Source: Lineus longissimus (Eukaryota > Nemertea > Pilidiophora > Heteronemertea > Lineidae). Taken from it: a stretch of DNA of 64,000 nucleotides. The notes beneath the pieces are model-generated. The model had not been told where the DNA came from, searched no databases, and was given only the letters and a program-made list of their open reading frames with translations. Where the stretch lies: NCBI RefSeq assembly GCF_910592395.1, contig NC_088315.1, forward strand, positions 19,696,219 through 19,760,218, read 5' to 3'. Position 1 is the first letter of the stretch, and each line of letters opens with the position of its first letter. Of the stretch, positions 12,020-52,240 are shown in pieces. Both the position numbers and the translations under genes were made by a program.

Positions 12020-13274
12020 AAGTTTCTCGTCGATTGGGGTCTGATCGATCGTTTTCACGCGCCTGTGATGACATGCTGCAACGGTAGTGGCAGAGAGAAA
12101 ACACTCGATCTGCTTGGAGAATGGACGCACACTATGAAGGCATCTGTATTTTGGGAACGAGGAATCTTCAAATTTTTTCACAGCTGTTTTGACAGATCCG
12201 GTCCTTGTGGCGCACATGACCTTTGGTGGGTAGTGTTGAAGGACAATCTCCCAATGAGAGGATAGCCATTTGCTGCGGAGTAAAAGAATGCTGGTACAGG
12301 GTACTAGTAGCACTGAGCAACCGTTACTTATTGCAAGGCTAGGAGATTGGTTGAGATTTCACAGTAAGTGCCCCAGACGCATGTCGTTTCCATGGCTCTG
12401 AAGGGGGTCTGTCTAGTTCAAAATACTATTTTCTCAACGTCATGATCTTAGTTCAATGTACAGGGGATGCTTTGGTGATTTTATGATGCCATCTTCTGTG
12501 ACTTTGGACAAAGTCACCAATCCGGTTGGGCCTTATACGCGAACATACCTCAAAGCCGTGGGGCGAGATCGAGGGTGAATTTCCTTGGTTCGTGTTCTGG
12601 CCCATACCAGCGAAAAAAAGCTGTGATGGGGTACACTTTTGGCATTGAACCTTTAAAGTATATATATCTAGCTATCGTATGGAGGTCAGCTCATGTGCCT
12701 GAATAATCTCCTTTACATAGTGTATGAGCCTGTTCCTTGGTCCATATAGTAGGGGAATTTTGGTGTGGTTTTCGACCGTTTGTGGGATCTATAGGTGGTG
12801 TCAAACGGTGGCACTGCCTATTGGTCAAAAAACCAATTAGTTGCCATGAATAAGCCATGGAGACCTTCCCTACCAAAAAATGTGTAGGTTCTTGTTATCA
12901 ATGTCAGCAATTTGGTGTCTAGATCAATCCGGGACATGGCTTACATCCCATGTCAGGAGCAAGTCTGACGTCACCTACGCCCGGGGATGGGTCCACCGCA
13001 CTGGCTAGTGAGACCGATGTACAAGAAAATGTACCAAAATGGCGGCAAGCCGAGTAATTCTGGTGATAATGAAATAATATCTAAGAAAGTAAATTTTCAT
13101 AGTTATTGCCTGCATTTGCGATTTAATTTTTACTCGTATCGACACGAACATTTAATAAGCAACGACAGTAAAAGAGAAATAGAGTCCATTTCCGTGTAGT
13201 CGATTCCGGTGCGTCAGGTTTCTGTGGATTGCTCCATGTCACATCGTGGTTTATCAACCTCTCAAAAGACCGTG

Positions 13275-13511
13275 CTAGCAGTTTGCATAATTAGGGTGGT
13301 GATGGCAACAATGGTGGTCATCACAGCAGTTATGGGCGTTATGGTGATGGCAACAATGCTCATCAGCGCAGCAGTTCTCGGCGTTAGGATGGTGTTCGCA
13401 ACAATGGGCGTCGTGACAGTGGTGTAATAGACCGTTGCCCTCACTCGCTTGTACCGTAACACACATCACCGCTACCACCAGCAGAAGTATCATGCATGCA
13501 ACTCGCGCCAT
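13275..13511 (-). CDS. His/Cys-rich secreted peptide, copy 1 (78 aa)
   Basis: Start at ATG 13511, thirteen bases into exon 2, whose acceptor TTCCTTGCAG precedes 13524. Residues 1-22 are a signal peptide (MARVACMILLLVVAVMCVT, then VQA). The 56-residue mature part has 12 Cys and 16 His, arranged as three imperfect repeats of the pattern D-x-H-C-C-x-H-H-(P)-N-A-x-N-C-C, the last ending ANC before the stop. Exon 1 is non-coding (about 14734-14685, donor GTAAGT). An ATTAAA poly(A) signal lies near 13156, about 120 nt past the stop. I recognise no family. The composition suggests binding of Zn, Cu or another soft metal, or extensive disulphides; neither can be told from sequence. Confidence 0.8.
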   Translation of the reverse strand: MARVACMILLLVVAVMCVTVQASEGNGLLHHCHDAHCCEHHPNAENCCADEHCCHHHNAHNCCDDHHCCHHHPNYANC

Positions 13512-13778
13512 GTTTGCGAAAATTCTGCAAGGAAAGAAAATGAAAATTTTTGAATGTATTTCACGGGTCAGGTCACAGGCGTTTGTGAGGAGCTGGGATC
13601 GAGGGACTATTTTTCCGTTCACACCACCAACCATGCACAATGTAAATTATGTAAAGCGAATGTACATACCGGGATTAAAAAGTAAAGAAAGGTTGCAACC
13701 AAACTAGGCACCCAAATCGACTCCACAAAATCACCCTCTAGTATTATGATAGTCCAAATCACTCATAACGGCGTCAGT

Positions 13779-13901
13779 GAGTTTTCGCAAATCACCGAAA
13801 CGCCAACGCGAACGCCTGTCCCATTGTTCGATATCATGATCAGGAGGTCAAACAATGGAATAATCGTTCGCGCTGGCGTTTCGGGGGATTTGCGAAAACT
13901 C
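13779..13901. repeat. 123-bp foldback in the intron of peptide gene 1
   Basis: Arms GAGTTTTCGCAAATCaCCGA and GAGTTTTCGCAAATCCCCCG (reverse complement of the right end) extend through AACGCCA[A/G]CGCGAACG, about 36 bp, with an inner CCATTGTT/AACAATGG pair and a palindromic ATCATGAT near the centre. It is kept in all five units. Confidence 0.85.
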
Positions 13902-14684
13902 CCTATCTACAACTTCGAAGCTGGCATGCATTAATTGATGCGTCATAAATTTACAGATTGATCACTGCGTCTTTAATTTACAAATTGTTGCGTAACTTTG
14001 ATAAAATTGCAAAAAAGTCGGATCCAAACGTAAGTCCTCCGGTTTTCTCCATCGCTTTCATCTCAGACCAATGTACCTCGTCCCTGCATTTCATTATCGA
14101 GAACGGAGTGTATTGAAAACCTCTGGTTATGCGAGTATGTAAAAAAGAGATAAAAAGAGAATTCCGTACTTCGACAAAATGCCCCTTATCTGATTCAACT
14201 CTATAGAACTGCAGCGCTTAAGTTTATCTTTGGTATGATATAAAAACCCCGACTATCTGAGTTCAGGAAAAGATTTGCCATCATTTTGAAAAAGACAAAT
14301 TTTCTAGAATTTCTCAAGTTAAAAATTCTTAGTTTTATCAAGTCTTGCTGTTGATTACACGAGATGCTAAAAAACCCAAGAGAATCGCAGACACTTTCTC
14401 CGATGGTTGCTAACCCACCGACAACTTCGTCGCGAGTGAATCCAGCTTTAGATTGAAGCCAACCTCTAGATTGGAGCCTTAGATGGACTGTATTTAACTC
14501 ACAGTTTTCTCATCGTGGCGAGGCTATGCCAGGACACCAAGAGAGATGTGTTCTGGTTTTCATGCGCAGTTTGAAACGATCGGTGATATTCTTAGCCTTG
14601 GCTCGGAGAGGTGACAACCCTCGGAGAAGTTGTTGCTGGATCCCCGGGGTAAATAAATCAAATCGACAATTAACATGGACTTAC

Positions 14685-14763
14685 CTGTTTGTCTGTACGA
14701 GGTCTGGAGATATCTTGAAGTCGAAGTTTCGAATGAAGTTTCTGGTGAAGCAAGGGGTTTATA
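14685..14763 (-). promoter_or_regulatory. TATA promoter and non-coding exon 1 of peptide gene 1
   Basis: TATAAA (14763-14758) lies 29 bp before an initiator-like TTCATTC whose A is at 14734. The inferred exon 1 runs to 14685 and ends CAG before GTAAGT. A TTGGCCAA word lies about 50 bp upstream of the TATA box. The same arrangement is found in all five units. Confidence 0.75.
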
Positions 14764-15557: not shown

Positions 15558-18500
15558 TATATCATAATACTATAAGGCGGCTCGATAAAGTGCCATTTGG
15601 GGGTAGTGTTTCGTCTCGAAATTTTGCACGTTTGCAGGTGATATGTTATCCTGATGCAACGTTATGTTTATTTTCGGAAATTTACTTCAGCGGAGCAGTA
15701 ATGAGGGATTTTTAATCGGACACTGTCAATTCTCCTTACCACTCACAGAAGCCAAGTCATAGCTGTTTAGTTATGCAGGGGCTTAATCAATTACCTGCAC
15801 TCCCTGTGGGGTGGCTAACATTACCTGTTGAACGGCTGGCTGTAGGGGGATGATTGGAACAGCCTGTACCTGTTGACCTGCTGAACTAAGGTTAGTGTTA
15901 TTTTCAATCCACGATTGCAGGTCACCTAATGTTCGAGATTTCGCGGGGAAAGAAATTGTAAACAAACGTATGTGTGCAGTTCAAATGTAAACAAACATGT
16001 ATTTTTGGTACTTTCGGTTGCTGGACTTGGGTTTTCCCGCAGTAAGGAGCTGGGGTCAAATTGGTGGTCTATTTATATGGGTGCTGTGTTAGCCAGAGCT
16101 AGCCCTTGATTATGAAGGGATTTTCAAATGAAGGTTACCATGGTCTGTTTATGTGCTCACCACAGCTTTCAATAATTGATCTGAAGAGGCGCGCTGAACC
16201 TGAAATGGCCTTATCAAGGAGCTGCTCATGGTGCTGAACATCTAGCTTGCCTGTCGAGTAAGTGCCTTGCCCGAGACCTGGCTTCATGAAGGAGGAGCAC
16301 GCATTTTAAAGTTATAGTAGCGATAGTACAATTTGTTCGAGCCATTTGGAGGCCGACATGTGAAGGCCTATCTGGGTATTCCTTCTTCTCCGTATAAAAA
16401 GGCGCATATTGCTGACAAAGAAACGAGGCATTGCCTCATCATCTCTATCGGACCAACTGATATACTTTTATATGCACGCATACAGCACGCCACAGCTATG
16501 TCCGAGTCTGTGGACAAATGGTTGGTTTAATTTGTCTCTTCGATATGGCTCCTTTGATATTGGATTAGATTTTCATTGCAATTCAATCTATTCAAGGTAT
16601 AGCCCATTTGAACCTGCCTTCGCCACGGGTACAATGCTAGCAACTCAATATTTCTATAGATATTTTTTATGGTATATATATAGCTCGGTGATTTTATTGA
16701 AAATGTTTGCAGTTGATTTAAATGTTTGAATGGTTTAAAAACAAAATTTTTAGAAGCGAGGTCAACAGGGTCAAAAGAAATAGTTTTTGGCGCCAATGAT
16801 GTCGGCAATGGCAGATTTGAATTAAGATTCGAGTCGATTCTTTTGGAAGCCGAAAGTGCGGATGCACAGGGCAATTGCATTTAGAAAGCTCCACCGACTG
16901 ATAGTCAAACCATCCCTTGAGTGCTCGAAAACCTAGAATCAGTGTGTACTTCAGCTTGAAAAGTTCGCGGGTGAAGGGGTTTTCTTCATGATGATATTGA
17001 TAATGATAACAATGATGATGGTTAAAGAGCGCTGGCGGATCCAGGAACTGGAAGAAGAGGGAGCCTGCACTGCATTTCTCATCAAAATTGCTGCACTACA
17101 GGTGTGTTCCAAAATATCATGGTCAATTTCAAAGATTCTATAACAATCAGGGGGCGTGCCTCTGGTGCACCCCCTTGGATACGCCCCCGATAAACGTTCA
17201 TGGATGAAAGTAGAAAGCTAAAAAAGAAAACGATATAAGATTCGCCAGGGTTTGAATCTAATTCGAATCCGCGCCTGATAAACGTTCATGGATGAAAAAT
17301 GGAAAGAAGACCTTTCAAAAAAAACAAAAAAAACATTAGCCGGGGTTCGAACCCGTGACCACCCAATCTAAAGGGCAGCGCCTAACCGCTGAGCTATCAG
17401 GGCGGTCATGTTGACGTGAGATATTCAGCAATCTGGAATAAGATACGCGCCATGATACGCGCCATGATTGTGGCTAGGTCACGCTGGCGGAAGAGTAATT
17501 GGGTGCAAATAGTTCCAAGGTAACCGTATAACTCAATATTACTATAGATATTTCTTAATATATCGTATATATATAGCTCGGTGATTTTATTGAAAATGTT
17601 TGCAGTTGATTTAAATGTTTGAATGGTTTAAAAACAAAATTTTTAGAAGCGAGGTCAACAGGGTCAAAAGAAATAGTTTTTGGCGCCAATGATGTCGGCA
17701 ATGGCAGATTTGAATTGAGATTCGAGTCGATTCTTTTGGAAGCCGAAAGTGCGGATGCACAGGGCAATTGCATTTAGAAAGCTCCACCGACTGATAGTCA
17801 AACCATTCCCTGGAGTGCTCGAAAACCTGGAATCAGTGTGTACTTCAGCTTGAAAAGTTCGCGGGTGAAGGGGTTTTCTTCATGATAATATTGATAATGA
17901 TAATTATGATGATGGTTTAAGCGCGCTGCTGGTGGATCCAGGAACTGGAAGAAGAGGGAGCGTGCACTGCATTTCTCATCAAAATTGCTGCACTACAGGT
18001 GGGTTCCAAAATTTCATGGTCAATTTCAAAGATTCTATAACAATCAGGGGGCGTACCTCTGGTGCACTCCCTTGGATACGCCCCCGATAAACGTTCATGG
18101 ATGAAAGTAGAAAGAAAGCTAAAAATAAAACGATATAAGATTCGCCAGGGTTTGAATCTAATTCGAATCCGCGCCTGATAAACGTTCATGGATGAAAAAT
18201 GGAAAGAAGACCTTTTAAAAAAACGAAAAAATATACTCGCCGGTTTTCAAACCCGTGACCACCCAATCTAAAACGTAGCACTCTAACCGCTGAGCTATCA
18301 GGGCGTTCATGTTTTACGTGAGATATTCGGCAATCTGAAGACAGGCCTTAGGGTACGCGCCATGATTGTGGCTAGGTCACGCTGGCGGAAGAGTAATTGG
18401 GTGCGAATACTTCCAAGGTAACCGTATCAATATCATAATACTATAAGGTTGCTCGATAAAGTGCCATTTGGGGGCAGTGTTTCGTCTCGAAATTTTGCAC

Positions 18501-19450: not shown

Positions 19451-19489
19451 GTCAAAACCATCTGTAAAGGACCTTGGCTTTAGTCTTGA

Positions 19490-20175: not shown

Positions 20176-21329
20176 CTGGCATAATACCTGTGGCACATGT
20201 TGTTTGCGGGTGTTGGCTTACTGTGTGGTTGGGGCAATTTGGGCAAAATGAAATGATATGTCTGGGGGTTTTGATGTTTTCTTGTTTTTGATGATTGGGA
20301 CAATCTGGGTGACATGGGTTGATTGGTCTGAGGGGTTGTGACCGGAAAAATCAAACTCCACTCCATTTTGACGAACTATTTCGCAAATTGTGAAGAGGCA
20401 ATGGCGTGAAGTTACGAACTTAGTACAACAAATGCCGCGAGCATAGTGGGTGGCAGCACCAGACGGAGGAAGTAGTTCGCCTAGGGTTTTTTCGACACCC
20501 TCCGCACGGACTCCGCTCGTTCCGGAACACTCACTTACTTGTTAATCTGCAGTGGTTAGCCTGTTTTTTTTGCAGTGAAGAAATGTTAATCGGGATTTTA
20601 TATTACATTTTATATTTGCCCCGGGTATTCATAAAGGGAGCTGTGCGCTACATTGCGCCCAGTGCTGGGGTCGGGTGAGGCAGTTTTGTTATTATGTGAC
20701 GCGTATCACGTGATGAATTCCCATACGGTACTTCGAAAAATTAAGAGCGATTAACAACGTAAGGTGAAAGAGTACGACCAAAATAAAGGGGGGAAATTGC
20801 GGAGATGGATGAATGCTTTAAACATATAGTGGCCCCAATACTTTCCCGGCTTATCTTTGTATAATCCCACACTTTTGATTTAATAGATGGCCCCATATGC
20901 AAATCAGACCTGCTGAAATGGCCCCTTATGTTAATGAGTATGCCCATATATAGAAAGAACAAAAAATGCCATTTCTCCGAGATCGCAGCAAAATTTACCC
21001 ATTTAACCCGGCGAGGACCATCTCCATATCAACCACGACTTTCAGGAAACGTTTCGAGGTCATCCGATCTGAACTGACGGAGGAAACATGTGACAAACTA
21101 TTTCAGCTCTACGTCCATTATAGTAGTGATTATTTACTTATGAAAGTCAGAGATCTGCCCACGGACGATCTGCTGCCCGCAAGTGCCATCTGTGTGCATA
21201 ACTTGAGAAATTTATTTGAAGATTTTGTGGCATTATGTATGAAGTTCATGAGTCGTCTTTCAAGGGTTATCATGATGTCATAATCATCAAGGACAGCAGG
21301 GATAAGGTAATTGTAGGTTGAGGGTGAAA

Positions 21330-21803
21330 TACCCAGAACCCTACGCACACTTTTCCTCCACGCAGTGTATACACACTGTATATGGGACCACCGCGGTGAT
21401 CCCAAAACGGTTTCGCAACCTAGACAGCAGTATGTCCTGATCAATGGTGTCGAAGGCGGCCGAGAGGTCGAGGAGCACCAGCACAACCTCCTTGCCTTGC
21501 TCGAGTGCCACAAGTAGGTCGTTCACCACGTGCAACAAAGCAGTTTCAGTGCTGTGCCCCTTTCTGTAGGCAGATTGCATCCGTGGGTAAAGGCCGCTTG
21601 AGTTGACGTGTGCGATAAGCTGCTCCGCCACGACCTTCTCGACTACCTTCGACACGAAAGATAAGTTAGAGACTGGGCGGTAATTGCTCGGAATGTCACA
21701 GTCAAGTGATGGCTTTTTAAGCAAAGGAATCACAAGGTCTATTTTGAAGCAAGTTGGCACCACACCCGATTGCCACGAAGCGTTCGTCAGTTTTGCAAGA
21801 AAT
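21330..21803 (-). mobile_element. CR1/L2-like RT fragment, minus strand (unit 1)
   Basis: Reads FLAKLTNASWQSGVVPTCF, NYRPVSNLSFVSKVVEKVV, QSAYRKGHSTETALLHVV and [13 protein letters not shown] (RT palm motif A), then loses similarity at RFGITAVVPY. It faces the plus-strand LINE end at 20175. It is cut at 21803 by the unit junction. Confidence 0.75.
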
Positions 21804-22283
21804 CGCGCCTGTGATGACAAGCTGCAACGGTAGTGGCAGAGAAAAAACACTCGATCTGCTTGGAGAATGGACGCACACTATGAAGGCATCTGTATTTTGG
21901 GAACGAGGAATCTTCAAATTTTTTTCACAGCTGTTTTGACAGATCCGGTCTTTGTGGCGCACATGACCTTTGGTGGGTAGTGTTGAAGGACAATCTCCCA
22001 ATGAGAGGATAGCCATTTGCTGCGGAGTAAAAGAATGCTGGTACAGGGTACTAGTAGCACTGAGCAACCGTTACTTATTGCAAGGCTAGGAGATTGGTTG
22101 AGGTCTCACAGTAAGTGCCCCAGACGCATGCCGCTTCCATGGATCTGAATGGGTCTGTCTTGTTCAAAATACTATTTTCTCAACGTCATGATCTTAGTTT
22201 CAATGTACAGGGGATGCTTTGGTGATTTTATGATGCCATCTTCTGTGACTTTGGACAAAGTCACCAATCCGGTTGGGTCATAA

Positions 22284-23436: not shown

Positions 23437-23673
23437 CTAGCAGTTTGCATAATTAGGGTGGTGATGGCAACAATGGTGGTCATCACAGCAGTTATGGGCG
23501 TTATGGTGATGGCAACAATGCTCATCAGCGCAGCAGTTCTCGGCGTTAGGATGGTGTTCGCAACAATGGGCGTCGTGACAGTGGTGTAATAGACCGTTGC
23601 CCTCACTCGCTTGTACCGTAACACACATCACCGCTACCACCAGCAGAAGTATCATGCATGCAACTCGCGCCAT
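23437..23673 (-). CDS. His/Cys-rich secreted peptide, copy 2 (78 aa)
   Basis: Encodes the same 78 residues as copy 1. Exon 2 begins at 23686 and the ATG is at 23673. Exon 1 is inferred at about 24896-24847 with a GTAAGT donor, and the intron is full length (about 1.16 kb). Identity over the whole gene including the intron points to a recent duplication or gene conversion with copy 1. Confidence 0.8.
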   Translation of the reverse strand: MARVACMILLLVVAVMCVTVQASEGNGLLHHCHDAHCCEHHPNAENCCADEHCCHHHNAHNCCDDHHCCHHHPNYANC

Positions 23674-23940
23674 GTTTGCGAAAATTCTGCAAGGAAAGAA
23701 AATGAAAATTTTTGAATGTATTTCACGGGTCAGGTCACAGGCGTTTGTGAGGAGCTGGGATCGAGGGACTATTTTTCCGTTCACACCACCAACCATGCAC
23801 AATGTAAATTATGTACAGCGAATGTACACACCGGGATTAAAAAGTAAAGAAAGGTTGCAACCAAACTAGGCACCCAAATCGACCCAACAAAATCACCCTC
23901 CAGTATTATGATAGTCCAAATCCCTCATAACGGCGTCAGT

Positions 23941-24063
23941 GAGTTTTCGCAAATCACCGAAACGCCAACGCGAACGCCTGTCCCATTGTTCGATATCATG
24001 ATCAGGAGGTCAAACAATGGAATAATCGTTCGCGCTGGCGTTTCGGGGGATTTGCGAAAACTC
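23941..24063. repeat. 123-bp foldback in the intron of peptide gene 2
   Basis: Same arms and spacing as the copy at 13779-13901. Confidence 0.85.
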
Positions 24064-24846
24064 CCTATCTACAACTTCGAAGCTGGCATGCATTAATTGA
24101 TGCGTCATAAATTTACAGATTGATCACTGCGTCTTTAATTTACAAATTGTTGCGTAACTTTGATAAAATTGCAAAAAAGTCGGATCCAAACGTAAGTCCT
24201 CCGGTTCTCTACATCGCTTTCATCTCAGACCAATGTACCTCATCCCTGCATTTCATTATCGAGAACGGAGTGTATTGAAAACCTCTGGTTATGCGAGTAT
24301 GTAAAAAAGAGATAAAAAGAGAATTCCGTACTTCGACAAAATGCCCCTTATCTGATTCAACTCTATAGAACTGCAGCGCTTAAGTTTATCTTTGGTATGA
24401 TATAAAAACCCCGACTATCTGAGTTCAGGAAAAGATTTGCCATCATTTTGAAAAAGACAAATTTTCTAGAATTTCTCAAGTTAAAAATTCTTAGTTTTAT
24501 CAAGTCTTGCTGTTGATTACACGAGATGCTAAAAAACCCAAGAGAATCGCAGACACTTTCTCCGATGGTTGCTAACCCACCGACAACTTCGTCGCGAGTG
24601 AATCCAGCTTTAGATTGAAGCCAACCTCTAGATTGGAGCCTTAGATGGACTGTATTTAACTCACAGTTTTCTCATCGTGGCGAGGCTATGCCAGGACACC
24701 AAGAGAGATGTGTTCTGGTTTTCATGCGCAGTTTGAAACGATCGGTGATATTCTTAGCCTTGGCTCGGAGAGGTGACAACCCTCGGAGAAGTTGTTGCTG
24801 GATCCCCGGGGTAAATAAATCAAATCGACAATTAACATGGACTTAC

Positions 24847-27080: not shown

Positions 27081-27239
27081 TTCATTATTTACTTATGAAA
27101 GTCAGAGATCTGCCCACAGACGATCTGCTGCCCGCAAGTACCATCTGTGTGCATAACTTGAGAAATTTATTTGAAGATTTTGTGGAATTATGTATGAAGT
27201 TGATGAGACGTCTTTCAAGGGTTATCATGATGTCATAAT

Positions 27240-27990
27240 CATCAAGGACAGCGGGGACAAGGTAATTGTGGGTTGAGGGTGAAATACCCAGAACCCTACG
27301 CACACGTTTCCTCCACGCAGTGTATACACACTGTATATGGGACCACCGCGGTGATCCCAAAACGGTTTCGCAACCTAGACAGCAGTATGTCCTGATCAAT
27401 GGTGTCGAAGGCGGCCGAGAGGTCGAGGAGCATCAGCACAACCTCCTTGCCTTGCTCGAGTGCCATAAGCAGGTCGTTAACCACGTGCAACAAAGCAGTT
27501 TCAGAGCTGTGCCCCTTTCTGTAGGCAGATTGCACCCGTGGGTAAATGCCGCTTCAGTTGACGTGTGCGATAAGCTGCTCCGCCACGACTAAGTTCTCGA
27601 CTACCTTCGACACGAAAGATATGTTAGAGACTGGGCGGTAATTGCTCGGAATGTCACAGTCAAGTGATGGCTTTTTAAGCAAAGGAATCACAAGGTCTTT
27701 TTTGAAGCAAGTTGGCACCACACCCGATTGCAACGAAGCGTTCGTCAGCTTTGCAAGAAATGGTGCAAAGTCAGTTTCAAAGTCTTTTAGCAGAGATGTC
27801 GGCAAAGGGTCAAGCTCACAGGTGGTTGATATCAGACGTTTTAGAATACGGGTCACTTCGGCCGTTGAAATACTGGAGAATTGCGTCAGTTCACTGCCAG
27901 TGAAGGTCGGTACACCAACAGGGTTTGTAGAATCGTCATCTCCAAAACCAGACCGAATCTTCAAGATTTCTCGTGGAAAAAAACAGCAAA
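27240..27990 (-). mobile_element. CR1/L2-like RT fragment, minus strand (unit 2)
   Basis: Longer version of the fragment in unit 1. An upstream part (STTCELDPLPTSLLKDF) leads into NYRPVSNISFVSKVVE, and a frameshift separates this from QSAYRKGHSSETALLHVV and [13 protein letters not shown]. It is a pseudogene. Confidence 0.75.
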
Positions 27991-27999
27991 CTGATCGGC

Positions 28000-30686: not shown

Positions 30687-30890
30687 CTAGCAGTTTGCAT
30701 GATTAGGGTGGTGATGGCAACAATGGTGGTCATGGGCAGGGCAGCAGTTATGGGCGCTAGGATGGTGTAAGCAACAATGGGCGTCGTGACAGTGGTGTAA
30801 TAGACCTTTGCCCTTTCCCCCATGTCGATCTCCCGTAACACACATCACCGCTACCACCAGCAGAAGTATCATGCATGCAACTCGTGCCAT
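30687..30890 (-). CDS. His/Cys-rich secreted peptide, copy 3 (67 aa)
   Basis: Start at ATG 30890; exon 2 begins at 30903. The signal peptide is identical to copy 1 through MCVT, followed by GDRHGGKGKGLLHHC instead of VQASEGNGLLHHC. The mature part has 8 Cys and 15 His and only two repeat units (HCCLHHPSAHNCCP and HCCHHHPNHANC). Exon 1 is inferred at about 32415-32366. The intron lacks a block present in units 1, 2 and 4 (joined at GTACTTGCCAACCC). This is the second peptide type. Confidence 0.8.
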   Translation of the reverse strand: MARVACMILLLVVAVMCVTGDRHGGKGKGLLHHCHDAHCCLHHPSAHNCCPAHDHHCCHHHPNHANC

Positions 30891-31158
30891 GTTTGCGAAA
30901 ATTCTGCAAGGAAAGAAAAATGAAAAATTTTGAATGTATTTCACGGGTCAGGTCACAGGCGTTGGTGAGGGGCTGGGATCGAGGGACTATTTTTCCGTTC
31001 ACACCACCAACCATGCACAATGTAAATTATGTACAGCGAATGTACACACCGGCATTACAAAGTAAAGAAAGGTTGCAACCAAACTAGGCACTCAAATCGA
31101 CCCCACAAAATCACCCTCTAGTATTATGATAGTCCAAATCACTCATAACGGCGTCAGT

Positions 31159-31281
31159 GAGTTTTCGCAAATCACCGAAACGCCAACGCGAACGCCTGTC
31201 CCATTGTTCGATATCATGATCAGGAGGTCAAACAATGGAATAATCGTTCGCGCTGGCGTTTCGGGGGATTTGCGAAAACTC
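31159..31281. repeat. 123-bp foldback in the intron of peptide gene 3
   Basis: Same foldback as in units 1, 2, 4 and 5, with unchanged arms. Confidence 0.85.
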
Positions 31282-32365
31282 CCTATCTACAACTTCGAAG
31301 CTGGCATGCACTAATTGATGCGTCATAAATTTACAGATTGATCACTGCGTCTTTAATTTACAAATTGTTGCGTAACTTTGATAAAATTGCAAAAAAGTCA
31401 GATCCAAACGTAAGTCCTCCGGTTCTCTACATCGCTTTCATCTCAGTCCCATGTACCTTGTCCCTGCATTCTTTCAATCCCACGTCATTATCGAGAACGG
31501 AGTGTATTGAAACCATCTGGTTATGCGAGTTTGTGAAAAAGAGATAAAAAGAGAATTCCGTACTTGCCAACCCACCGACAACTTCGTCGCGAGTGAATCC
31601 AGCTTTAGATTGAAGCCAAACTCTAGATTGGAGCCTTAGATGGACTGTATTTAACTCACAGTTTTCTCATCGTGGCGAGGCTATGCCAGGACACCAAGAG
31701 AGCTGCGTTCTGGTTTTCATGTGGAGTTTGAAACTCTGTTTTCGGCGTCTTAACTACAAAACACTGAGATACATGTTGTCTGATCCGGGAAGCGCAATTT
31801 GCTTTCTTTTAAATACTGAAGACTGAGATGCAACAGTAGTCTAAAATTTAAAGGTGTTCGTTCACATACATTTACTATTGGTCCAACTATATCTAGTTCC
31901 TTTTTCTAACGCCAGCCGACATCCGTCAGCCATAATGCATGATAAATGCATGCATGCTTCCGTGTTATTGGTATGCAATTGGGGTATGATGTTTCCCGAT
32001 TGCTCGGTGTTATGTGTACACTGGCTTTGTCATGCAAATACAACAAGGTATGTGTATTGTTTCAATCATCCCAAATCTGTCAAAAACGACGAGAGCCGGC
32101 GCCGGATTGGCGTTTGACATTTTCATGGAAACGGCCAACAAAGTAAACCATCGGTGTGAGCCAAAAAGAATGCCTGTTTCTATTTGTTCTGCATAGCCTC
32201 AAGACAACCAGGGGACTGATATACGATATACAGTCCAAAATGGTCTATATCTTAAGCTATCGGTGATATTGTTAGCCTTGGCTCGGAGAGGTGACAACCC
32301 TCGGAGAAGTTGTTGCTTGATCCCCCGGAGTAAATAAATCAAATTGACAAATAACATGGACTTAC

Positions 32366-36200: not shown

Positions 36201-37317
36201 GTTTGCAGTTGATTTAAATGTTTGAATGGTTTAAAAAGAAATTTTTTAGAAGCGAGGTCAACAGGGTCAAAAGAAATAGTTTTTGGCGCCAATGATGTCG
36301 GCAATGGCAGATTTGAATTAAGATTCGAGTCGATTCTTTTTGAAGCCGAAAGTGCGGATGCACAGGGCAATTGCATTTAGAAAGCTCCGCCGACTGATAG
36401 TCAAACCATTCCCTGGAGTGCTCGAAAACCTGGAATCAGTGTGTACTTCAGCTTGAAAAGTTCGCGGGTGAAGGGGTTTTCTTCATGATAATATTGATAA
36501 TGATAATAATGATGATGGTTTAAGAGCACTGGTGGATCCAGGAACTGGAAGAAGAGGGAGCGTGCATTGCATTTCTCATCAAAATTGCTGCACTACAGTT
36601 GGGTTCCAAAATTTCATGGTCAATTTCAAAGATTCTATAACAATCAGGGGGCGTACCTCCGGTGCACTCCCTTGGATACGCCCCCGATAAACGTTCATGG
36701 ATGAAAGTAGAAAGAAAGCTAAAAATAAAACGATATAAGATTCGCCAGGGTTTGAATCTAATTCGAATCCGCGCCTGATAAACGTTCATGGATGAAAAAT
36801 GGAAAGAAGACCTTTTAAAAAAACGAAAAAATATACTCGCCGGTTTTCGAACCCGTGACCACCCAATCTAAAGCGTAGCACTCTAACCGCTGAGCTATCA
36901 GGGCGTTCATGTTTTACGTGAGATATTCGGCAATCTGAAGACAGGCCTTAGGGTACGCGCCATGATTGTGGCTAGGTCACGCTGGCGGAAGAGTAATTGG
37001 GTGCGAATACTTCCAAGGTAACCGTATCAATATCATAATACTATAAGGTTGCTCGATAAAGTGCCATTTGGGGGCAGTGTTTCGTCTCGAAATTTTGCAC
37101 GTTTGCAGGTGATATGTTATCCTGATGCAACGTTATGTTTATTTTCGGAAATTTACTTCAGCGGAGCAGTAATGAGGGATTTTTAATCGGACACTGTCAA
37201 TTCTCCTTACCACTCACAGAAGCCAAGTGATATTGCATTAGATTTTCATTGCAATTCAATCTATTCAAGGTATAGTCCATTTGAAACTGCCTGCGCCACG
37301 GGTACAATGCTAGTCAA
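33254..37317. mobile_element. Composite insert with three subrepeats (unit 3)
   Basis: Same insertion point and same terminal direct repeats as the unit 1 insert. It holds three ~0.9-kb subrepeats (from about 34338, 35234 and 36133) with minus-strand tRNA-like heads at 35044-35113, 35941-36009 and 36839-36907. The third head has a decayed B box (GGTTTTCGAA on the plus strand). The 60-codon frame is at 33479-33661. Confidence 0.7.
33479..33661 (-). other. Conserved 60-codon frame inside the composite insert (copy 2)
   Basis: Same frame as 15783-15965 with one Gly-to-Cys type change (TLCDL for TLGDL). Confidence 0.4.
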
Positions 37318-39788: not shown

Positions 39789-39992
39789 CTAGCAGTTTGC
39801 ATGATTAGGGTGGTGATGGCAACAATGGTGGTCATGGGCAGGGCAGCAGTTATGGGCGCTAGGATGGTGTAAGCAACAATGGGCGTCGTGACAGTGGTGT
39901 AATAGACCTTTGCCCTTTCCCCCATGTCGATCTCCCGTAACACACATCACCGCTACCACCAGCAGAAGTATCATGCATGCAACTCGCGCCAT
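39789..39992 (-). CDS. His/Cys-rich secreted peptide, copy 4 (67 aa)
   Basis: Same protein as copy 3. Start ATG 39992; exon 2 from 40005. Exon 1 is inferred at about 41778-41729. Its intron is full length like units 1-2 (it keeps TTCGACAAAATGCCCC), whereas copies 3 and 5 have the deletion, so intron and peptide type do not track each other. Confidence 0.8.
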   Translation of the reverse strand: MARVACMILLLVVAVMCVTGDRHGGKGKGLLHHCHDAHCCLHHPSAHNCCPAHDHHCCHHHPNHANC

Positions 39993-40260
39993 GTTTGCGA
40001 AAATTCTGCAAGGAAAGAAAAATGAAAAATTTTGAATGTATTTCACGGGTCAGGTCACAGGCGTTTGTGAGGAGCTGGGATCGAGGGACTATTTTTCCGT
40101 TCACACCACCAACCATGCACAATGTAAATTATGTACAGCGAATGTACACACCGGCATTACAAAGTAAAGAAAGGTTGCAACCAAACTAGGCACCCAAATC
40201 GACCCCACAAAATCACCCTCTAGTATTATGATAGTCCAAATCACTCATAACGGCGTCAGT

Positions 40261-40383
40261 GAGTTTTCGCAAATCACCGAAACGCCAACGCGAACGCCTG
40301 TCCCATTGTTCGATATCATGATCAGGAGGTCAAACAATGGAATAATCGTTCGCGCTGGCGTTTCGGGGGATTTGCGAAAACTC
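40261..40383. repeat. 123-bp foldback in the intron of peptide gene 4
   Basis: Same foldback as in the other units, with the arms intact. Confidence 0.85.
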
Positions 40384-41728
40384 CCTATCTTCAACTTCGA
40401 AGCTGGCATGCACTAATTGATGCGTCATAAATTTACAGATTGATCACTGCGTCTTTAATTTACAAATTGTTGCGTAACTTTGATAAAATTGCAAAAAAGT
40501 CAGATCCAAACGTAAGTCCTCCGGTTCTCTCCATCGCTTTCATCTCAGACCCATGTACCTCGTCCCTGCATTCTTTCAATCCTACGTCATTATCGAGAAA
40601 GGAGTGTATTGAAACCATCTGGTTATGCGAGTTTGTAAAAAAGAGAGAGAATTCCGTACTTCGACAAAATGCCCCTTATCTGATTCAACTCTATAGAACT
40701 GCAGCGCTTAAGTTTATCTTTGGTATGATATAAAAACCCCGACTATCTGAGTTCAGGAAAAGATTTGCCATCATTATGAAAAAGACAAATTTTCTAGAAT
40801 TTCTCAAGTTAAAAATTCTTAGTTTTATCAAGTCTTGCTGTTGATTACACGAGATGCAAAAAAACCCAAGAGAATCGCAGACACTTCCTCCGATGGTTGC
40901 CAACCCACCGACAACTTCTACGCGAGTGAATCCAGCTTTAGATTGAAGCCAACCTCTAGATTGGAGCCTTAGATGGATTGTATTTAACTCACAGTTTTCT
41001 CATCGTGGCGAGGCTATGCCAGGACACCAAGAGAGCTGTGTTCTGGTTTTCGTGCGCAGTTTGAAACTCTGTTTTCGGCGTCTTAACTACAAAACACTGA
41101 GATACATGTTGTCTGATCCGGGAAGCGCAATTTGCTTTCTTTTAAATACTGAAGACTGAGATGCAACAGTAGTCTAAAATTTAAAGGTGTTCGTTCACAT
41201 ACATTTACTATTGGTCCAACTATATCTAGTTCCTTTTTCTAACGCCAGCCGACATCAGTCAGCCATAATGCATGATAAATGCATGCATGCTTCCGTGTTA
41301 TTGGTATGCAATTGGGGTGTATGATGTTTCCCGATTGCTCGGTGTTATGTGTACACTGGCTTTGTCATGCGAATACAAGGTATGTGTATTGTTTCAATCA
41401 TCCCAAATCTGTCAAAAACGACGAGAGCCGGCGCCGGATTGGCGTTTGACATTTTCATGGAAACGGCCAACAAAGTAAACCATCGGTGTGAGCCAAAAAG
41501 AATGCCTGTTTCCATTTGTTCTGCATAGCCTCAGGACAACCAGGGGACTGATATACGATATACAGTCCAAAATGGTCAAGTTTAAAAGAGGTAGCCTTTG
41601 ATCTTAAGCTATATCTTAAGCTATCGGTGATATTGTTAGCCTTGGCTCGGAGAGGTGACAACCCTCGGAGAAGTTGTTGCTGGATCCCCAGAGTAAATAA
41701 ATCAAATTGACAAATAACATGGACTTAC

Positions 41729-41807
41729 CTGTTTGTCTGTACGAGGTCTGGAGATATCTTGAAGTCGAAGTTTCGAATGAAGTTTCTGGTGAAGCAAGGG
41801 GTTTATA
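41729..41807 (-). promoter_or_regulatory. TATA promoter and exon 1 of peptide gene 4
   Basis: TATAAA at 41807-41802, initiator A inferred at 41778, donor at 41729/41728. Confidence 0.75.
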
Positions 41808-42797: not shown

Positions 42798-45700
42798 TAT
42801 ATCATAATACTATAAGGCGGCTCGATAAAGTGCCATTTGGGGGTAGTGTTTCGTCTCGAAATTTTGCACGTTTGCAGGTGATATGTTATCCTGATGCAAC
42901 GTTATGTTTATTTTCGGAAATTTACTTCAGCGGAGCAGTAATGAGGGATTTTTAATCGGACACTGTCAATTCTCCTTACTACTCACAGAAGCCAAGTCAT
43001 AGCTGTTTAGTTATGCAGGGGCTTAATCAATTACCTGCACTCCCTGTGGGGTGGCTAACATTACCTGTTGAACGGCTGGCTGTAGGGGGATGATTGGAAC
43101 AGCCTGTACCTGTTGACCTGCTGAACCAAGGTTAATGTTATTTTCAATCCACGATTGCAGGTCACCTAATGTTCGAGATTTTGCGGGGAAAGAAATTGTA
43201 AACAAACGTATGTGTGCAGTTCAAATGTAAACAAAAATGTATTTTTGGTACTTTCGGTTGCTGGACTTGGGTTTTCCCGCAGTAAGGAGCTGGGGTCAAA
43301 TTGGTGGTCTATTTATATGGGTGCTGTGTTAGCCAGAGCTAGCCCTTGATTATGAAGGGATTTTCAAATGAAGGTTACCATGGTCTGTTTATGTGCTCAC
43401 CACACTTTCAATAATTGATCTGAAGAGGCGCGCTGAACCTGAAATGGCCTTATCAAGGAGCTGCTCACGGTGCTGAACATCTAGCTTGCCTGTCGAGTAA
43501 GTGCCTTGCCCGAGACCTGGCTACATGTAGGAGGAGCACGCATTTTAAAGTTATAGTAGCGATAGTGCAATTTGTTCGAGCCATTTGGAGGCCGACATGT
43601 GAAGGCCTATCTGGGTATTCTTTCTTCTCCGTATAAAAAGGCGCATATTGCTGACTAAGGAACGAGGCATTGCCTCATCACTCTCTATCGGACCAACTGA
43701 TATACTTTTATATGCACGCATACAGCACGCCACAGCTATGTCCGAGTCTGTGGACAAATGGTTGGTCTAATTTGTCTCTTCGATATGGCTCCTTTGATAT
43801 TGGATTAGATTTACATTGCAATTCAATCTATTCAAGGTATAGCCCATTTGAACCTGCCTGCGCCACGGGTACAATGCTAGCAACTCAATATTTCTATAGA
43901 TATTTCTTAATATATGGTATATATATAGCTCGGTGATTTTATTGAAAATGTTTGCAGTTGATTTAAATGTTTAAATGGTTTAAAAACAAATTTTTAGAAG
44001 CGAGGTCAACAGGGTCAAAAGAAATAGTTTTTGGCGCCAATGATGTCGGCAATGGCAGATTTGAATTAAGATTCGAGTCGATTTTTTGGAAGCCGAAAGT
44101 GCGGATGCACAGGGCAATTGCATTTAGAAAGCTCCGCCGACTGATAGTCAAACCATTCCCTGGAGTGCTCGAAAACCTGGAATCAGTGTGTACTTCAGCT
44201 TGAAAAGTTCACGGGTGAAGGGGTTTTCTTCATGATGATATTGATAATGATAATAATGATGATGGTTTAAGAGCACTGGTGGATCTAGGAACTGGAAGAA
44301 GAGGGAGCGTGCACTGCATTTCTCATCAAAATTGCTGCACTACAGTTGGGTTCCAAAATTTCATGGTCAATTTCAAAGATTCTATAACAATCAGGGGGCG
44401 TGCCTCTGGTGCACCCCTTTGGATACGTGCCTGATAAACGTTCATGGATGAAAGTAGAAAGAAAGCTAAAAAAGAAAACGATATAAGATTCGCCAGGGTT
44501 TGAAGCTAATTCGAATCCGCGCCTGATAAACGTTCATGGATGAAAAATGGAAAGAAGACCTTTTAAAAAAAAACAAAAAATCATTCGCCGGGGTTCGAAC
44601 CCGTGACCACCCAATCTAAAGCGCAGCGCTTTAACCGCTGAGCTATCAGGGCGGTCATGTTTGACGTGAGATTTTCGGCAATCTGAAGACAGGCCTTAGG
44701 GTACGCGCCATGATTGTGGCTAGGTCACGCTGGCGGAAGAGTAATTGGGTGCAAATAGTTCCAAGCTAACCGTATTACTCAATATTACTATAGATATTTC
44801 TTAATATATCGTATATATATAGCTCGGTGATTTTATTGAAAATGTTTGCAGTTGATTTAAATGTTTGAATGGTTTAAAAACAAAATTTTTAGAAGCGAGG
44901 TCAACAGGGTCAAAAGAAATAGTTTTTGGCGCCAATGATGTCGGCAATGGCAGATTTGAATTAAGATTCGAGTCGATTCTTTTGGAAGCCGAAAGTGCGG
45001 ATGCACAGGGCAATTGCATTTAGAAAGCTCCGCCGACTGATAGTCAAACCATTCCCTGGAGTGCTCGAAAACCTGGAATCAGTGTGTACTTCAGCTTGAA
45101 AAGTTCGCGGGTGAAGGGGTTTTCTTCATGATAATATTGATAATGATAATAATGATGATGGTTTAAGAGCACTGGTGGATCCAGGAACTGGAAGAAGAGG
45201 GAGCGTGCATTGCATTTCTCATCAAAATTGCTGCACTACAGTTGGGTTCCAAAATTTCATGGTCAATTTCAAAGATTCTATAACAATCAGGGGGCGTACC
45301 TCCGGTGCACTCCCTTGGATACGCCCCCGATAAACGTTCATGGATGAAAGTAGAAAGAAAGCTAAAAATAAAACGATATAAGATTCGCCAGGGTTTGAAT
45401 CTAATTCGAATCCGCGCCTGATAAACGTTCATGGATGAAAAATGGAAAGAAGACCTTTTAAAAAAACGAAAAAATATACTCGCCGGTTTTCGAACCCGTG
45501 ACCACCCGATCTAAAGCGTAGCACTCTAACCGCTGAGCTATCAGGGCGTTCATGTTTTACGTGAGATATTCGGCAATCTGAAGACAGGCCTTAGGGTACG
45601 CGCCATGATTGTGGCTAGGTCACGCTGGCGGAAGGGTAATTGGGTGCGAATACTTCCAAGGTAACCGTATCAATATCATAATACTATAAGGTTGCTCGAT

Positions 45701-46690: not shown

Positions 46691-46734
46691 CCAGTCAAAA
46701 CCATATGTAAAGGACCTTGGCTTTAGTCTTGACT

Positions 46735-48622: not shown

Positions 48623-48820
48623 CTAGCAGTTTGCACGATGAGGATGGTGATGGCAACAATGGTGGTCAGGGCAGCAGTTATGGGCGTTAGGATGGTGTAA
48701 GCAACAATGGGCGTCGTGACAGTGGTGTAATAGACCTTTGCCCTTTCCCCCATGTCGATCTCCCGTAACACACATCACCGCTACCACCAGCAGAAGTATC
48801 ATGCATGCAACTCGCGCCAT
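48623..48820 (-). CDS. His/Cys-rich secreted peptide, copy 5 (65 aa)
   Basis: Start ATG 48820; exon 2 from 48833. Type-2 sequence (GDRHGGKGKGLLHHC) with two repeat units and a two-residue deletion between them (NCCPDHHCC where copies 3-4 have NCCPAHDHHCC). It ends HPHRANC. The mature part has 8 Cys and 14 His. Exon 1 is inferred at about 50379-50330. This is the most diverged copy; all Cys are retained. Confidence 0.8.
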   Translation of the reverse strand: MARVACMILLLVVAVMCVTGDRHGGKGKGLLHHCHDAHCCLHHPNAHNCCPDHHCCHHHPHRANC

Positions 48821-49088
48821 GTTTGCGAAAATTCTGCAAGGAAAGAAAAATGAAAAATTTTGAATGTATTTCACGGGTCAGGTCACAGGCGTTGGTGAGG
48901 GGCTGGGATCGAGGGACTATTTTTCCGTTCACACCACCAACCATGCACAATGTAAATTATGTACAGCGAATGTACACACCGGGATTACAAAGTAAAGAAA
49001 GGTTGCAACCAAACTAGGCACTCAAATCGACCCCACAAAATCACCCTCTAGTATTATGATAGTCCAAATCACTCATAACGGCGTCAGT

Positions 49089-49211
49089 GAGTTTTCGCAA
49101 ATCACCGAAACGCCAACGCGAACGCCTGTCCCATTGTTCGATATCATGATCAGGAGGTCAAACAATGGAATAATCGTTCGCGCTGGCGTTTCGGGGGATT
49201 TGCGAAAACTC
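49089..49211. repeat. 123-bp foldback in the intron of peptide gene 5
   Basis: Same foldback as in the other units, intact. Confidence 0.85.
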
Positions 49212-50329
49212 CCTATCTACAACTTCGAAGCTGGCATGCACTAATTGATGCGTCATAAATTTACAGATTGATCACTGCGTCTTTAATTTACAAATTGTTG
49301 CGTAACTTTGATAAAATTGCAAAAAAGTCGGATCCAAACGTAAGTCCTCCGGTTCTCTCCATCGCTTTCATCTCAGTCCCATGTACCTCGTCCCTGCATT
49401 CTTTCAATCCAACGTCATTATCGAGAACGGAGTGTATTGAAACCATCTGGTTATGCGAGTTTGTAAAAAAGAGATAAAAAGAGAATTCCGTACTTGCCAA
49501 CCCACCGACAACTTCGTCGCGAGTGAATCCAGCTTTAGATTGAAGCCAAACTCTAGATTGGAGCCTTAGATGGACTGTATTTAACTCACAGTTTTCTCAT
49601 CGTGGCGAGGCTATGCCAGGACACCAAGAGAGCTGTGTTCTGGTTTTCATTCGCAGTTTGAAACTCTGTTTTCGGCGTCTTAACTACAAAACACTGATAT
49701 ACATGTTGTCTGATCCGGGAAGCGCAATTTGCTTTCTTTTAAATACTGAAGACTTAGATGCAACAGTAGTCTAAAATTTAAAGGTGTTCGTTCACATACA
49801 TTTACTATTGGTCCAACTTTACCTAGTTCCTTTTTCTAACGCCAGCCGACATCAGTCAGCCATAATGCATGATAAATGCATGCATGCTTCCGTGTTATTG
49901 GTATGCAATTGGGGTGTATGATGTGTCCCGATTGCTCGTTGTTATGTGTACACTGGCTTTGTCATGCAAATACAACAAGGTATGTGTATTGTTTCAATCA
50001 TCCCAAATCTGTCAAAAACGACGAGAGCCGGCGCCGGATTGGCGTTTGACATTTTCATGGAAACGGCCAACAAAGTAAACCATCGGTGTGAGCCAAAAAG
50101 AATGCCTGTTTCCATTTGTTCTGCATAGCCTCAAGACAACCAGGGGACTGATATACGATATACAGTCCAAAATGGTCAAGTTTCAAAGAGGTAGCCTTTG
50201 ATCTTAAGCTATATCTTAAGCTATCGGTGATATTGTTAGCCTTGGCTCGGAGAGGTGACAACCCTCGGAGAAGTTGTTGCTGGATCCCCCGGAGTAAATA
50301 AATCAAATTGACAAATAACATGGACTTAC

Positions 50330-50408
50330 CTGTTTGTCTGTACGAGGTCTGGAGATATCTTGAAGTCGAAGTTTCGAATGAAGTTTCTGGTGAAGCAAGG
50401 GGTTTATA
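50330..50408 (-). promoter_or_regulatory. TATA promoter and exon 1 of peptide gene 5
   Basis: TATAAA at 50408-50403, initiator A inferred at 50379, donor CAG|GTAAGT at 50330/50329. Confidence 0.75.
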
Positions 50409-50650
50409 AAGGCGGGAGAACAAAGCGCGTTGTGAGCCATCTGGCGATGGCAAATTGGCCAATTAGACCATCGATGAGTTTATCAACATCATCATTATAA
50501 ACTAGACAAAAAAAATTGAAATTATTTAAAGTAGCTTTTATGATGATAAGTAAAGTACTTATGTGAAGTGATCATGCCTTTGCGCAATGCCGGCAATGCA
50601 ACACGTACTCGCAATTATTGATTCACTTCATGCAGATCTACGTGTACCGG

Positions 50651-50823
50651 TGTAATATATTTGAGTGTTTCCCATGTGTCAGTGTTTCCCCTCATTGTTT
50701 GGGAACGCTCAAAAATAGATTGACAAGTTTTTCTGTGTATCCCCCCTATTGAAAAGTCGTGGTCTCTCTAGCTGCCTATTGTTTGGAAACACTGACACAT
50801 GGGGAACAACCACAGATGTTACA
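50651..50823. mobile_element. 173-bp MITE private to unit 5, with CCGG target duplication
   Basis: Terminal inverted repeats about 39 bp long begin TGTAATATATTTGAGTGTTT and, from the other end, TGTAACATCTGTGGTTGTTC; both continue to CCATGTGTCAGTGTTTCC. CCGG flanks both sides (50647-50650 and 50824-50827), and unit 3 has a single CCGG (32681-32684) with no element. Confidence 0.9.
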
Positions 50824-51300
50824 CCGGCGTTGTGTGTATTATCAGGTATAGAACAACTCCAAATAACCCCATAAATGTGTGGTTTTTAAATCAGTTGCAT
50901 TTGACGCCCTAGCCATTTGTAAGGGTTGCTATTGATGGCAGGGCCAATACGAACAAACGGATACTTCTCTTATCTTCATACTTGCTATAGTAACTGAGTT
51001 GCTTTGATTTTTGTTTTTAAATATTCTTTATTTTCTCCATTTATCACAGAGATGATTTTAAAATGATCAGCCCAATGAACACGTTTTGTTTCGGGGGGGG
51101 AATATTTAGTACGGGGGTGTTATCAAATAATTCAGGCAGAAGCAGTCCGATAAGTTCAAGGGTTGATGACTCAGAGCTAATTTAATTACAAAAAGTCCCT
51201 TATGATGAAAATTAGTGCTAGTCTATGTAACCATGAAAGGAGGAGACTTCGGGATTGATGTTCACCAACGGTAAGTCGGCATGAAAGCTTGTAGACCAGG

Positions 51301-51500
51301 GCCCGGTTGTTCAAAAGAAGAAATACACTTTTAAAGATAACTTAACGTTAAAATTCCTAACTTGGCGTTAAGATAACGTCAAGTTTTATTTTGAGTTGTT
51401 CAAACAATATTAGCCTAACATTGGCGTTATCTTTAACGTTAGATTTAACTTACCTAAAACCCTAAGTTAAATCTAACGTTATCTTTAACTTGGCGTTAGC
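51301..51500. repeat. AACGTTA-rich inverted repeat
   Basis: Opens CCCGGTTGTTCAAAAG. It contains a perfect 19-bp hairpin (51434-51452 with 51463-51481, arm TAACGTTAGATTTAACTTA, 10-nt loop) plus several further TTAACGTTA and GGCGTTA words. Same class of foldback as 6887-7015. Confidence 0.7.
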
Positions 51501-52240
51501 AGCCAATTCAAGATGGCGTCTGCCAACTTGGCACTTTTTCCTGTTGAGGGAGTTTTTCGAAAAAAACGTATTTATTTGCCGCACACGAATCATTTAGATA
51601 CATGTAGTACAGCGATTTTACGATGAATGTTGGTAAAGTAGGGATTGATCAATGTGCTGCGAGCGATGGCTAGTTGTGTCGTGTGACCTGGTGAGGAATT
51701 CTAACAGACTCTTGTTGCGTAACTCTTCTTATATTCAAAATTTCTAAGAAGCGCCAAAAACATCATTTTGCCCCCAAGTCCATACATACACAATCCTGCA
51801 AAAATCAATTCATTGTGTACTCCCAATATTCCCTTGCAAAAATAATGGAGCACTTTGATGATAATTGGATGTTTCTTCAAATGACGCAGCAGGATTTGTA
51901 GAAAAACCATGGACGCCGATGATAACTCGTAAAGGGGTACGCCGCACGTAGTTTATGTATAGTATACCCAACGGCAATGTTGAAATTCATCGATATTCAG
52001 TGCGTATTTACATAATTTTAAAATATATATTTATCAATTACAAATTTCAAATTTTTAACGAAAGCGTGATCTTCAATGTCATCTGGACTGTCGATGTAAA
52101 TGACTGCGTGGATAATCAGCGAGTTTTCAATCAAAACATGAGGGCCCTTATCAAACTCAAGAAGATGTAGTTACAACGCCCTAAACTAACTGATTGAGGG
52201 AATGCTCCAGGTGTTTTAAATTGACTCTTCAATTCAAATT

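What the first reader, a model, noticed from the sequence alone, without database searches (positions are those of the whole stretch)
12020..52240. Five-copy cluster of tiny secreted peptides that are half His plus Cys
The sequence shows five minus-strand genes, each with a signal peptide and a mature part made of repeated D-x-H-C-C-x-H-H-(P)-N-A-x-N-C-C units (12 Cys and 16 His of 56 residues in copies 1-2). I recognise no described family with paired HCC/NCC repeats. Expanded copy number plus a strong-looking TATA promoter suggests dosage selection. Metal sequestration or delivery, cross-linking of a secreted material, or antimicrobial metal withholding are inferences from composition only.
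Basis: partly seen in the sequence, partly recalled or inferred. Interest (0 to 1): 0.88.

Follow-up and report, generated by a model that had tools for sequence, protein, structure and literature searches.

The report
Histidine-cysteine secreted peptides in ribbon worm
A ribbon-worm chromosome, most likely of the bootlace worm, carries five neighbouring, intact copies of a gene for a tiny, apparently secreted peptide of which half is histidine and cysteine; it matches no family searched here, and its probable but untested job is binding metal in the worm's secretions.

Summary
Five intact minus-strand ORFs (78, 78, 67, 67, 65 aa) lie in a recent tandem array (12026-52237). Each has a hydrophobic leader and a mature part that is 49-50% His+Cys. 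The natural unit is a 4-Cys module, C-x4(6)-CC-x7/8-C: three in copies 1-2, two in copies 3-5. All five share a TATAAA, a CAG|GTAAGT donor 79 nt on, an intron, and an acceptor 13 nt before the ATG.

No relative was found in Pfam, NCBIfam, PDB, a 5.8-billion-protein collection, prokaryote, viral or phage DNA, or as sequence words in papers. The worm's genome could not be searched (11 of 11 genome-search runs unanswered), and no RNA data were available.

Best reading: a lineage-restricted secreted peptide family in which Cys form disulfides and His bind Zn/Cu, probably in skin or proboscis secretion. Secretion, disulfides, metal binding, tissue and expression are inferred. A disulfide-rich mucus or venom peptide is the close rival.

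The parts
13275..13511 (-). Copy 1 CDS, 78 aa: leader plus three 4-Cys modules (stop codon included)
13525..14684 (-). Copy 1 predicted intron (CAG|GTAAGT ... TTTCTTTCCTTGCAG), 1160 bp
   Evidence: predicted, no transcript
14685..14763 (-). Copy 1 TATAAA (first T at 14763) and predicted non-coding exon 1 (about 50 nt, ending at 14685)
   Evidence: start site not mapped, exon length is my estimate
13151..13156 (-). Copy 1 ATTAAA, candidate polyadenylation signal; a second ATTAAA lies 29 nt further on
23437..23673 (-). Copy 2 CDS, 78 aa, no nucleotide difference from copy 1 in the CDS
23687..24846 (-). Copy 2 predicted intron, 1160 bp; TATAAA first T at 24925
30687..30890 (-). Copy 3 CDS, 67 aa: leader plus two 4-Cys modules
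30904..32365 (-). Copy 3 predicted intron, 1462 bp; TATAAA first T at 32444
39789..39992 (-). Copy 4 CDS, 67 aa, same protein as copy 3
40006..41728 (-). Copy 4 predicted intron, 1723 bp; TATAAA first T at 41807
48623..48820 (-). Copy 5 CDS, 65 aa: leader plus two 4-Cys modules
48834..50329 (-). Copy 5 predicted intron, 1496 bp; TATAAA first T at 50408
12026..52237 (.). Tandem array of about five units (my reading: roughly 5-10 kb each) that carries the five genes; matching blocks are 91-99% identical

Best explanation
A recently amplified, lineage-restricted family of secreted peptides of a heteronemertean ribbon worm (most likely Lineus longissimus). Shown from sequence: intact genes with a eukaryotic promoter/intron layout, a hydrophobic N-terminal leader, and a mature part built of whole 4-Cys modules C-x4(6)-CC-x7/8-C with 4-7 His each. 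Inferred: the leader sends the peptide out of the cell; in the oxidising secretory pathway the four Cys of each module form two disulfides that make a compact scaffold; the His are left free and bind Zn(II) or Cu(II). The peptide is released in epidermal or proboscis secretion, where it sequesters or carries metal (withholding it from microbes, or setting and hardening secreted material). I give about 0.4 that metal binding by His is the main function.
For: Five intact ORFs of two types that differ by a whole module, with even Cys counts (12 or 8) in the mature part. All gaps inside the CDS are multiples of three (6 and 39 nt between copies 1 and 4, 6 nt between 4 and 5), while 7 of the 11 gaps outside it between copies 1 and 4 are not (alignment ends included). 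Modules 1 and 3 inside copy 1 differ at 5 of 7 synonymous but 8 of 41 non-synonymous sites (Fisher p = 0.011); the other two module pairs lean the same way (3.5 of 6.3 against 7.5 of 38.7; 5.5 of 6.0 against 7.5 of 39.0, not tested apart). So the modules seem to have been kept at the amino-acid level. All 8 aligned Cys survive 17 substitutions between copies 1 and 4; the same number of random substitutions keeps all Cys and no stop in 2.5% of 20,000 trials. The TATAAA-to-donor spacing is the same in 5 of 5 copies, and CAGGTAAGT occurs in the window only at these five places. Leader nearly invariant (1 of 57 columns) while the mature part varies (17 of 135; p = 0.016). A His-dependent, copper-chelating secreted antimicrobial peptide is known in ticks (microplusin; PMC5198042, passages).
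Against: No transcript, protein or metal data were available. The protein collection, which does list one protein of this window (P0001), returned none for this gene. The three prominent L. longissimus mucus peptide masses in print (3308.35, 3260.40, 6419.00; PMC5864730 passages) are assigned to nemertides, and none equals my predicted oxidised masses 6354.7, 5223.7 or 5084.6 (assumed cleavage sites). AlphaFold models are too weak to use (pLDDT 57.0 and 56.0). The selection signals are modest, rest on few sites and are not independent. Mature variability (17 of 135 columns) is above the intron (50 of 906, p = 0.004) but below the stretch upstream of the promoter (33 of 175), and the further 3' flank is also variable (30 of 359). 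pN against pS between copies 1 and 3 (15.5/109 against 1.5/23) does not prove positive selection.
Confidence: 0.42

Rival explanations
1. A disulfide-rich defensive or venom-type peptide (mucus toxin or antimicrobial peptide) whose scaffold, not metal, is the point. His are surface residues, perhaps a pH switch: copies 1-2 have no Lys or Arg in the mature part, so positive charge would rise only on acidification.
For: Even Cys, C-CC-C modules, conserved leader with variable mature part and invariant Cys, tandem copies. The likely host secretes Cys-rich peptide toxins in epidermal mucus (PMC5864730, passages), and so does another pilidiophoran, Kulikovia alborostrata (PMC11768458, passages).
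Against: Half His+Cys is unusual for such peptides (recalled). No similarity to any PDB chain even at E = 10. The words 'histidine' and 'metallothionein' do not occur in the main text of two nemertean toxin papers and one mucus proteome (word-start search, supplements not searched).
Confidence: 0.3
2. A structural or cross-linking component of a secreted material (mucus gel, lining, proboscis rhabdoids), joined by Cys oxidation and His-metal bonds.
For: Repetitive modular composition, His and Cys richness, several gene copies.
Against: Very short (45-56 aa mature), no long repetitive domain; no localisation data.
Confidence: 0.15
3. A secreted metallothionein-like detoxification or metal-storage peptide, with thiolates rather than disulfides as ligands.
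For: Cys are 17.0-21.4% of the mature part (8 of 47, 8 of 45, 12 of 56), with CC pairs.
Against: A hydrophobic leader points to an oxidising compartment; His exceeds Cys in the three distinct mature peptides; no Pfam or NCBIfam match.
Confidence: 0.08
4. Not an expressed gene: a minisatellite-like exon relic carried along by segmental duplication with transposons.
For: Array with transposon fragments; no protein of this gene retrieved.
Against: Five of five ORFs intact, in-frame indels only, promoter, splice and polyadenylation signals in each, synonymous excess between modules, Cys retention.
Confidence: 0.05

Closest known systems
Nemertides (alpha, beta) and other Cys-rich peptides of nemertean mucus
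   Same: Likely same animal; small secreted Cys-rich peptides (PMC5864730, PMC11768458, passages)
   Different: Alpha-1 has 31 residues and three disulfides, beta-1 57 residues and four disulfides; the term 'histidine' does not occur in that paper's main text; our peptide has C-CC-C modules and no PDB match at E = 10
Microplusin / hebraein (tick antimicrobial peptides)
   Same: Secreted and His-dependent; microplusin chelates Cu(II) (PMC5198042, passages)
   Different: Helical with no C-CC-C repeats (recalled); no Pfam or PDB sequence match of our peptide
Metallothioneins
   Same: Small, Cys-rich, CC pairs; metal binding expected
   Different: Metallothioneins are cytosolic and usually poor in His (recalled); these have a leader and more His than Cys; no Pfam match
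4-Cys conotoxins with C-CC-C order
   Same: Cys order C-CC-C within one module (framework recalled)
   Different: No homology evidence; here modules are repeated 2-3 times and His-rich

Membership tests
Metallothioneins | Match to a metallothionein profile | tested here: not met
   0 Pfam families at E up to 10 for 3 of 3 proteins; the sensitivity of the metallothionein profiles for such a peptide was not checked
Metallothioneins | No secretion leader | tested here: not met
   Hydrophobic leader MARVACMILLLVVAVMCVT in 5 of 5 copies; by inspection, no predictor run
Nemertide alpha / ICK toxins | Six-Cys inhibitor-knot pattern or match to a solved ICK chain | tested here: not met
   8 or 12 mature Cys in C-CC-C modules; 0 PDB chains at E up to 10
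Microplusin-like antimicrobial peptides | Sequence similarity to microplusin | tested here: inconclusive
   No Pfam or PDB match, but I did not check that a microplusin profile or chain is in those libraries
Microplusin-like antimicrobial peptides | Copper(II) binding through His | not testable with these tools
   needs purified peptide
Secreted Cys-rich peptide families (general) | Leader, even number of Cys, conserved leader and variable mature part | tested here: met
   secretion and signal cleavage themselves not tested
Expressed gene family | Spliced transcripts across exon 1/exon 2 | not testable with these tools
   no RNA reads available; protein collection returned no product

The most novel reading that the evidence does not exclude
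A previously undescribed extracellular metal-handling module of animals: a 15-18 residue C-x4-CC-x8-C unit in which two disulfides hold four to seven His (counts) as a Zn/Cu site, used in whole-number repeats and gained or lost between neighbouring gene copies. It would give ribbon-worm secretion a metal-based defence or hardening chemistry besides its known neurotoxins.
Probability: 0.25. Interest if true: 0.75.

Novelty: new variant of a known kind. Interest (0 to 1): 0.55.

Why it matters
If expressed, this is a compact, repeat-built His/Cys peptide with no relative in the collections searched, in an animal group whose secretions are studied for peptide toxins. It gives a small, synthesisable test of how disulfides and His can be combined in an extracellular metal-binding module. 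It also shows a gene family that changes by gaining or losing one 4-Cys unit. It may be missing from current gene sets, in which case mucus proteomics searched against them would not see it.

Tried and rejected
Homology: protein collection with copy 2 and with the four-row alignment A1 (15 candidates, none at E up to 1); Pfam and NCBIfam, 3 proteins each; PDB sequences; prokaryote contigs (52: 191 pattern matches, none confirmed); viral contigs (53: 20 pattern matches, none confirmed; the patterns came from the leader); phage records with copy 1. All negative. In some searches my reference for copy 2 had two extra residues in front and lacked the last Cys, and the references for copies 4 and 5 also lacked the last Cys; the later calls used exact frames. 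The prokaryote, viral and phage collections are not animal collections, so those negatives say little. Rfam (gathering threshold) and tRNA scans of the window: nothing.

Papers, all 10 searches: exact sequence words (six terms, any one enough), 0 papers (35); nemertean + histidine-rich + mucus, 0 papers (30); Lineus longissimus + histidine, 9 papers, listing and abstract starts seen only, none about such a peptide by title (70); three broader searches gave one paper each, none about such a peptide by title and abstract start; one was swamped by unrelated zinc and copper papers (59); three served to find the genome, mucus and microplusin papers (24: 10 papers, 34: 10, 51: 7). Supplements and papers outside the held library were not searched.

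Mass match: predicted 6354.7 would come near the published 6419.00 only with a metal added (my arithmetic); that peak is nemertide beta-1, with sequence and four disulfides reported, so rejected.

Purifying selection on promoter plus exon 1: not significant against the intron (p = 0.19); a longer invariant run (147 columns) lies in the intron over a foldback element. Positive selection on the mature part: suggestive only. Structure: two AlphaFold jobs, pLDDT 57.0 and 56.0, not used further. Searches listed other open frames; at the threshold of 11 His+Cys in 30, only one stretch besides the five came up, at 12.
Full report
WHAT IS THERE. The window holds five minus-strand ORFs at 13275-13511, 23437-23673, 30687-30890, 39789-39992 and 48623-48820. 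They encode 78, 78, 67, 67 and 65 residues. Copies 1 and 2 have the same CDS; copies 3 and 4 differ by one silent base; copy 5 differs slightly. All five start with MARVACMILLLVVAVMCVT. By the -3/-1 rule (my reading, no predictor run), cleavage after VQA (copies 1-2) or VTG (copies 3-5) leaves 56, 47 and 45 residues, with 12, 8 and 8 Cys and 16, 15 and 14 His. The best 30-residue open stretch in the window holds 20 His+Cys; 100 Markov surrogates reached at most 12.

THE MODULE. The repeat is best cut as C-x4-CC-x8-C: CHDAHCC-EHHPNAEN-C, CADEHCC-HHHNAHN-C, CDDHHCC-HHHPNYAN-C in copy 1; two such modules in copies 3-5, with a two-residue longer first gap (x6) in the last module of copies 3-4. The peptide ends on the last Cys of a module, and the two copy types differ by one module, so the number of Cys stays even. 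Gaps inside the CDS are 6 and 39 nt (copy 1 against 4; I read the 39 as a module lost or gained net of the two extra residues) and 6 nt (copy 4 against 5), all in frame; 7 of 11 gaps outside the CDS between copies 1 and 4 are not multiples of three, alignment ends included.

GENE MODEL. In 5 of 5 copies TATAAA starts 79 nt before a CAG|GTAAGT donor. An intron of 1160, 1160, 1462, 1723 or 1496 bp follows, ending TTTCTTTCCTTGCAG; then come 13 nt and the ATG. CAGGTAAGT occurs in the window only at these five places, each 40-110 nt after a TATAAA. ATTAAA follows at 316-355 and again at 345-384 nt from the ATG. Exon 1 would be about 50 nt (my estimate), non-coding. No transcript supports this yet.

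ARRAY. Self-comparison shows matching blocks, 91-99% identical, from 12026 to 52237; I read them as about five units of roughly 5-10 kb, with 0.9 kb tandem repeats between the genes and reverse-transcriptase sequence in at least one place (21344-21877). The duplications look recent, so conservation between copies is weak evidence of function.

SELECTION. Across the five copies 1 of 57 leader columns vary, against 17 of 135 mature, 50 of 906 intron, 6 of 150 first 3' and 30 of 359 further 3' columns, and 33 of 175 upstream of the promoter. Leader against mature p = 0.016; mature against intron p = 0.004; promoter plus exon 1 (3 of 126) against intron p = 0.19, not significant. Between copies 1 and 3 the mature part has 15.5 non-synonymous differences in 109 sites and 1.5 synonymous in 23: suggestive, not proof. 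Between modules 1 and 3 of copy 1 the picture is the reverse, 5 of 7 synonymous and 8 of 41 non-synonymous (p = 0.011), as expected for older repeats held by amino-acid constraint; the other two module pairs lean the same way. No Cys was lost in 17 substitutions between copies 1 and 4; chance for that with no stop is 2.5% of 20,000 trials. These tests use few sites and are not independent.

SOURCE. The window's glycosyltransferase (9954-11195) is in the protein collection as P0001 on a contig of 20,961,375 bases. Two named Lineus longissimus hits lie on contigs of 20,549,149 and 29,188,318 bases. Table 2 of the L. longissimus genome paper (PMC8593623, part 1 of 2 of the text read) gives chromosomes 8, 9 and 2 as 20.96, 20.55 and 29.19 Mb, with GC about 41%; the window has 43%. 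The window is therefore almost certainly chromosome 8 of this worm. This is an inference from lengths; the assembly itself could not be searched (11 of 11 genome-search runs unanswered: 6, 7, 18, 25, 31, 40, 46, 58, 65, 68, 71).

RELATIVES. None found: protein collection, Pfam, NCBIfam, PDB sequence, prokaryotes (52), viruses (53), phages, sequence words in papers (35). Searches used references that were off by one or two residues at the ends; 43, 44, 47 and 54 used exact ones. One protein of this window does appear in the collection (P0001), yet none came back for this gene, which suggests that it is missing from the gene set or lies outside the size and word limits of that search.

FUNCTION. 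The leader, even Cys, C-CC-C modules and His point to a secreted, disulfide-held peptide with metal-binding His. The likely host secretes Cys-rich peptides in epidermal mucus (PMC5864730, passages), as does Kulikovia alborostrata (PMC11768458, passages), and tick microplusin shows that a secreted peptide can act by chelating copper through His (PMC5198042, passages). Secretion, disulfides, metal binding and tissue are all inferred. AlphaFold gave no usable model.

VERDICT. A real, intact, recently expanded gene family with no detectable relatives in the searches made. It is a new variant of a known kind (secreted Cys-rich peptides), with an unusual His-rich repeated module. Interest rests on expression and metal binding, both directly testable.

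Noticed in passing
9954-11195 (-): Single open frame for a glycosyltransferase with DXD region (Gly_transf_sug, PF04488), 65% identical to a protein on a jgi contig and 36-41% to Lineus and Owenia proteins.
   Followed up: partly
2738-4555 (-): 606-residue open frame extremely rich in Lys (with Asp/Glu runs), no Pfam match.
   Followed up: no
54956-56145 (+) and 59893-61041 (-): Rhodopsin-type GPCR pieces beside the array: 55561-56145 and 59893-61041 pass the 7tm_1 cut-off, 54956-55270 falls below it, and 53414-53776 gave no match.
   Followed up: no
2143-2475 (-) and 5659-6021 (-): Cys-rich open stretches that may be exons of a secreted protein; only a sub-threshold Pfam match for the first, none for the second.
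   Followed up: partly
13776-13904: Foldback element of about 129 bp (45-nt arms, 80% complementary, with an outer 21-nt pair, 90%) inside the copy 1 intron; it lies in the longest invariant run (147 columns) of the five-copy alignment.
   Followed up: partly
16642-18445, 34338-37045, 43882-45688: Tandem 0.9 kb repeats inside the array units, about 93-96% identical.
   Followed up: no
57830-58546 (-), 21344-21877 (-): Reverse-transcriptase fragments (RVT_1); 27084-27761 is 96% identical DNA to 21129-21803, though the frame 27557-28003 gave no Pfam match.
   Followed up: no
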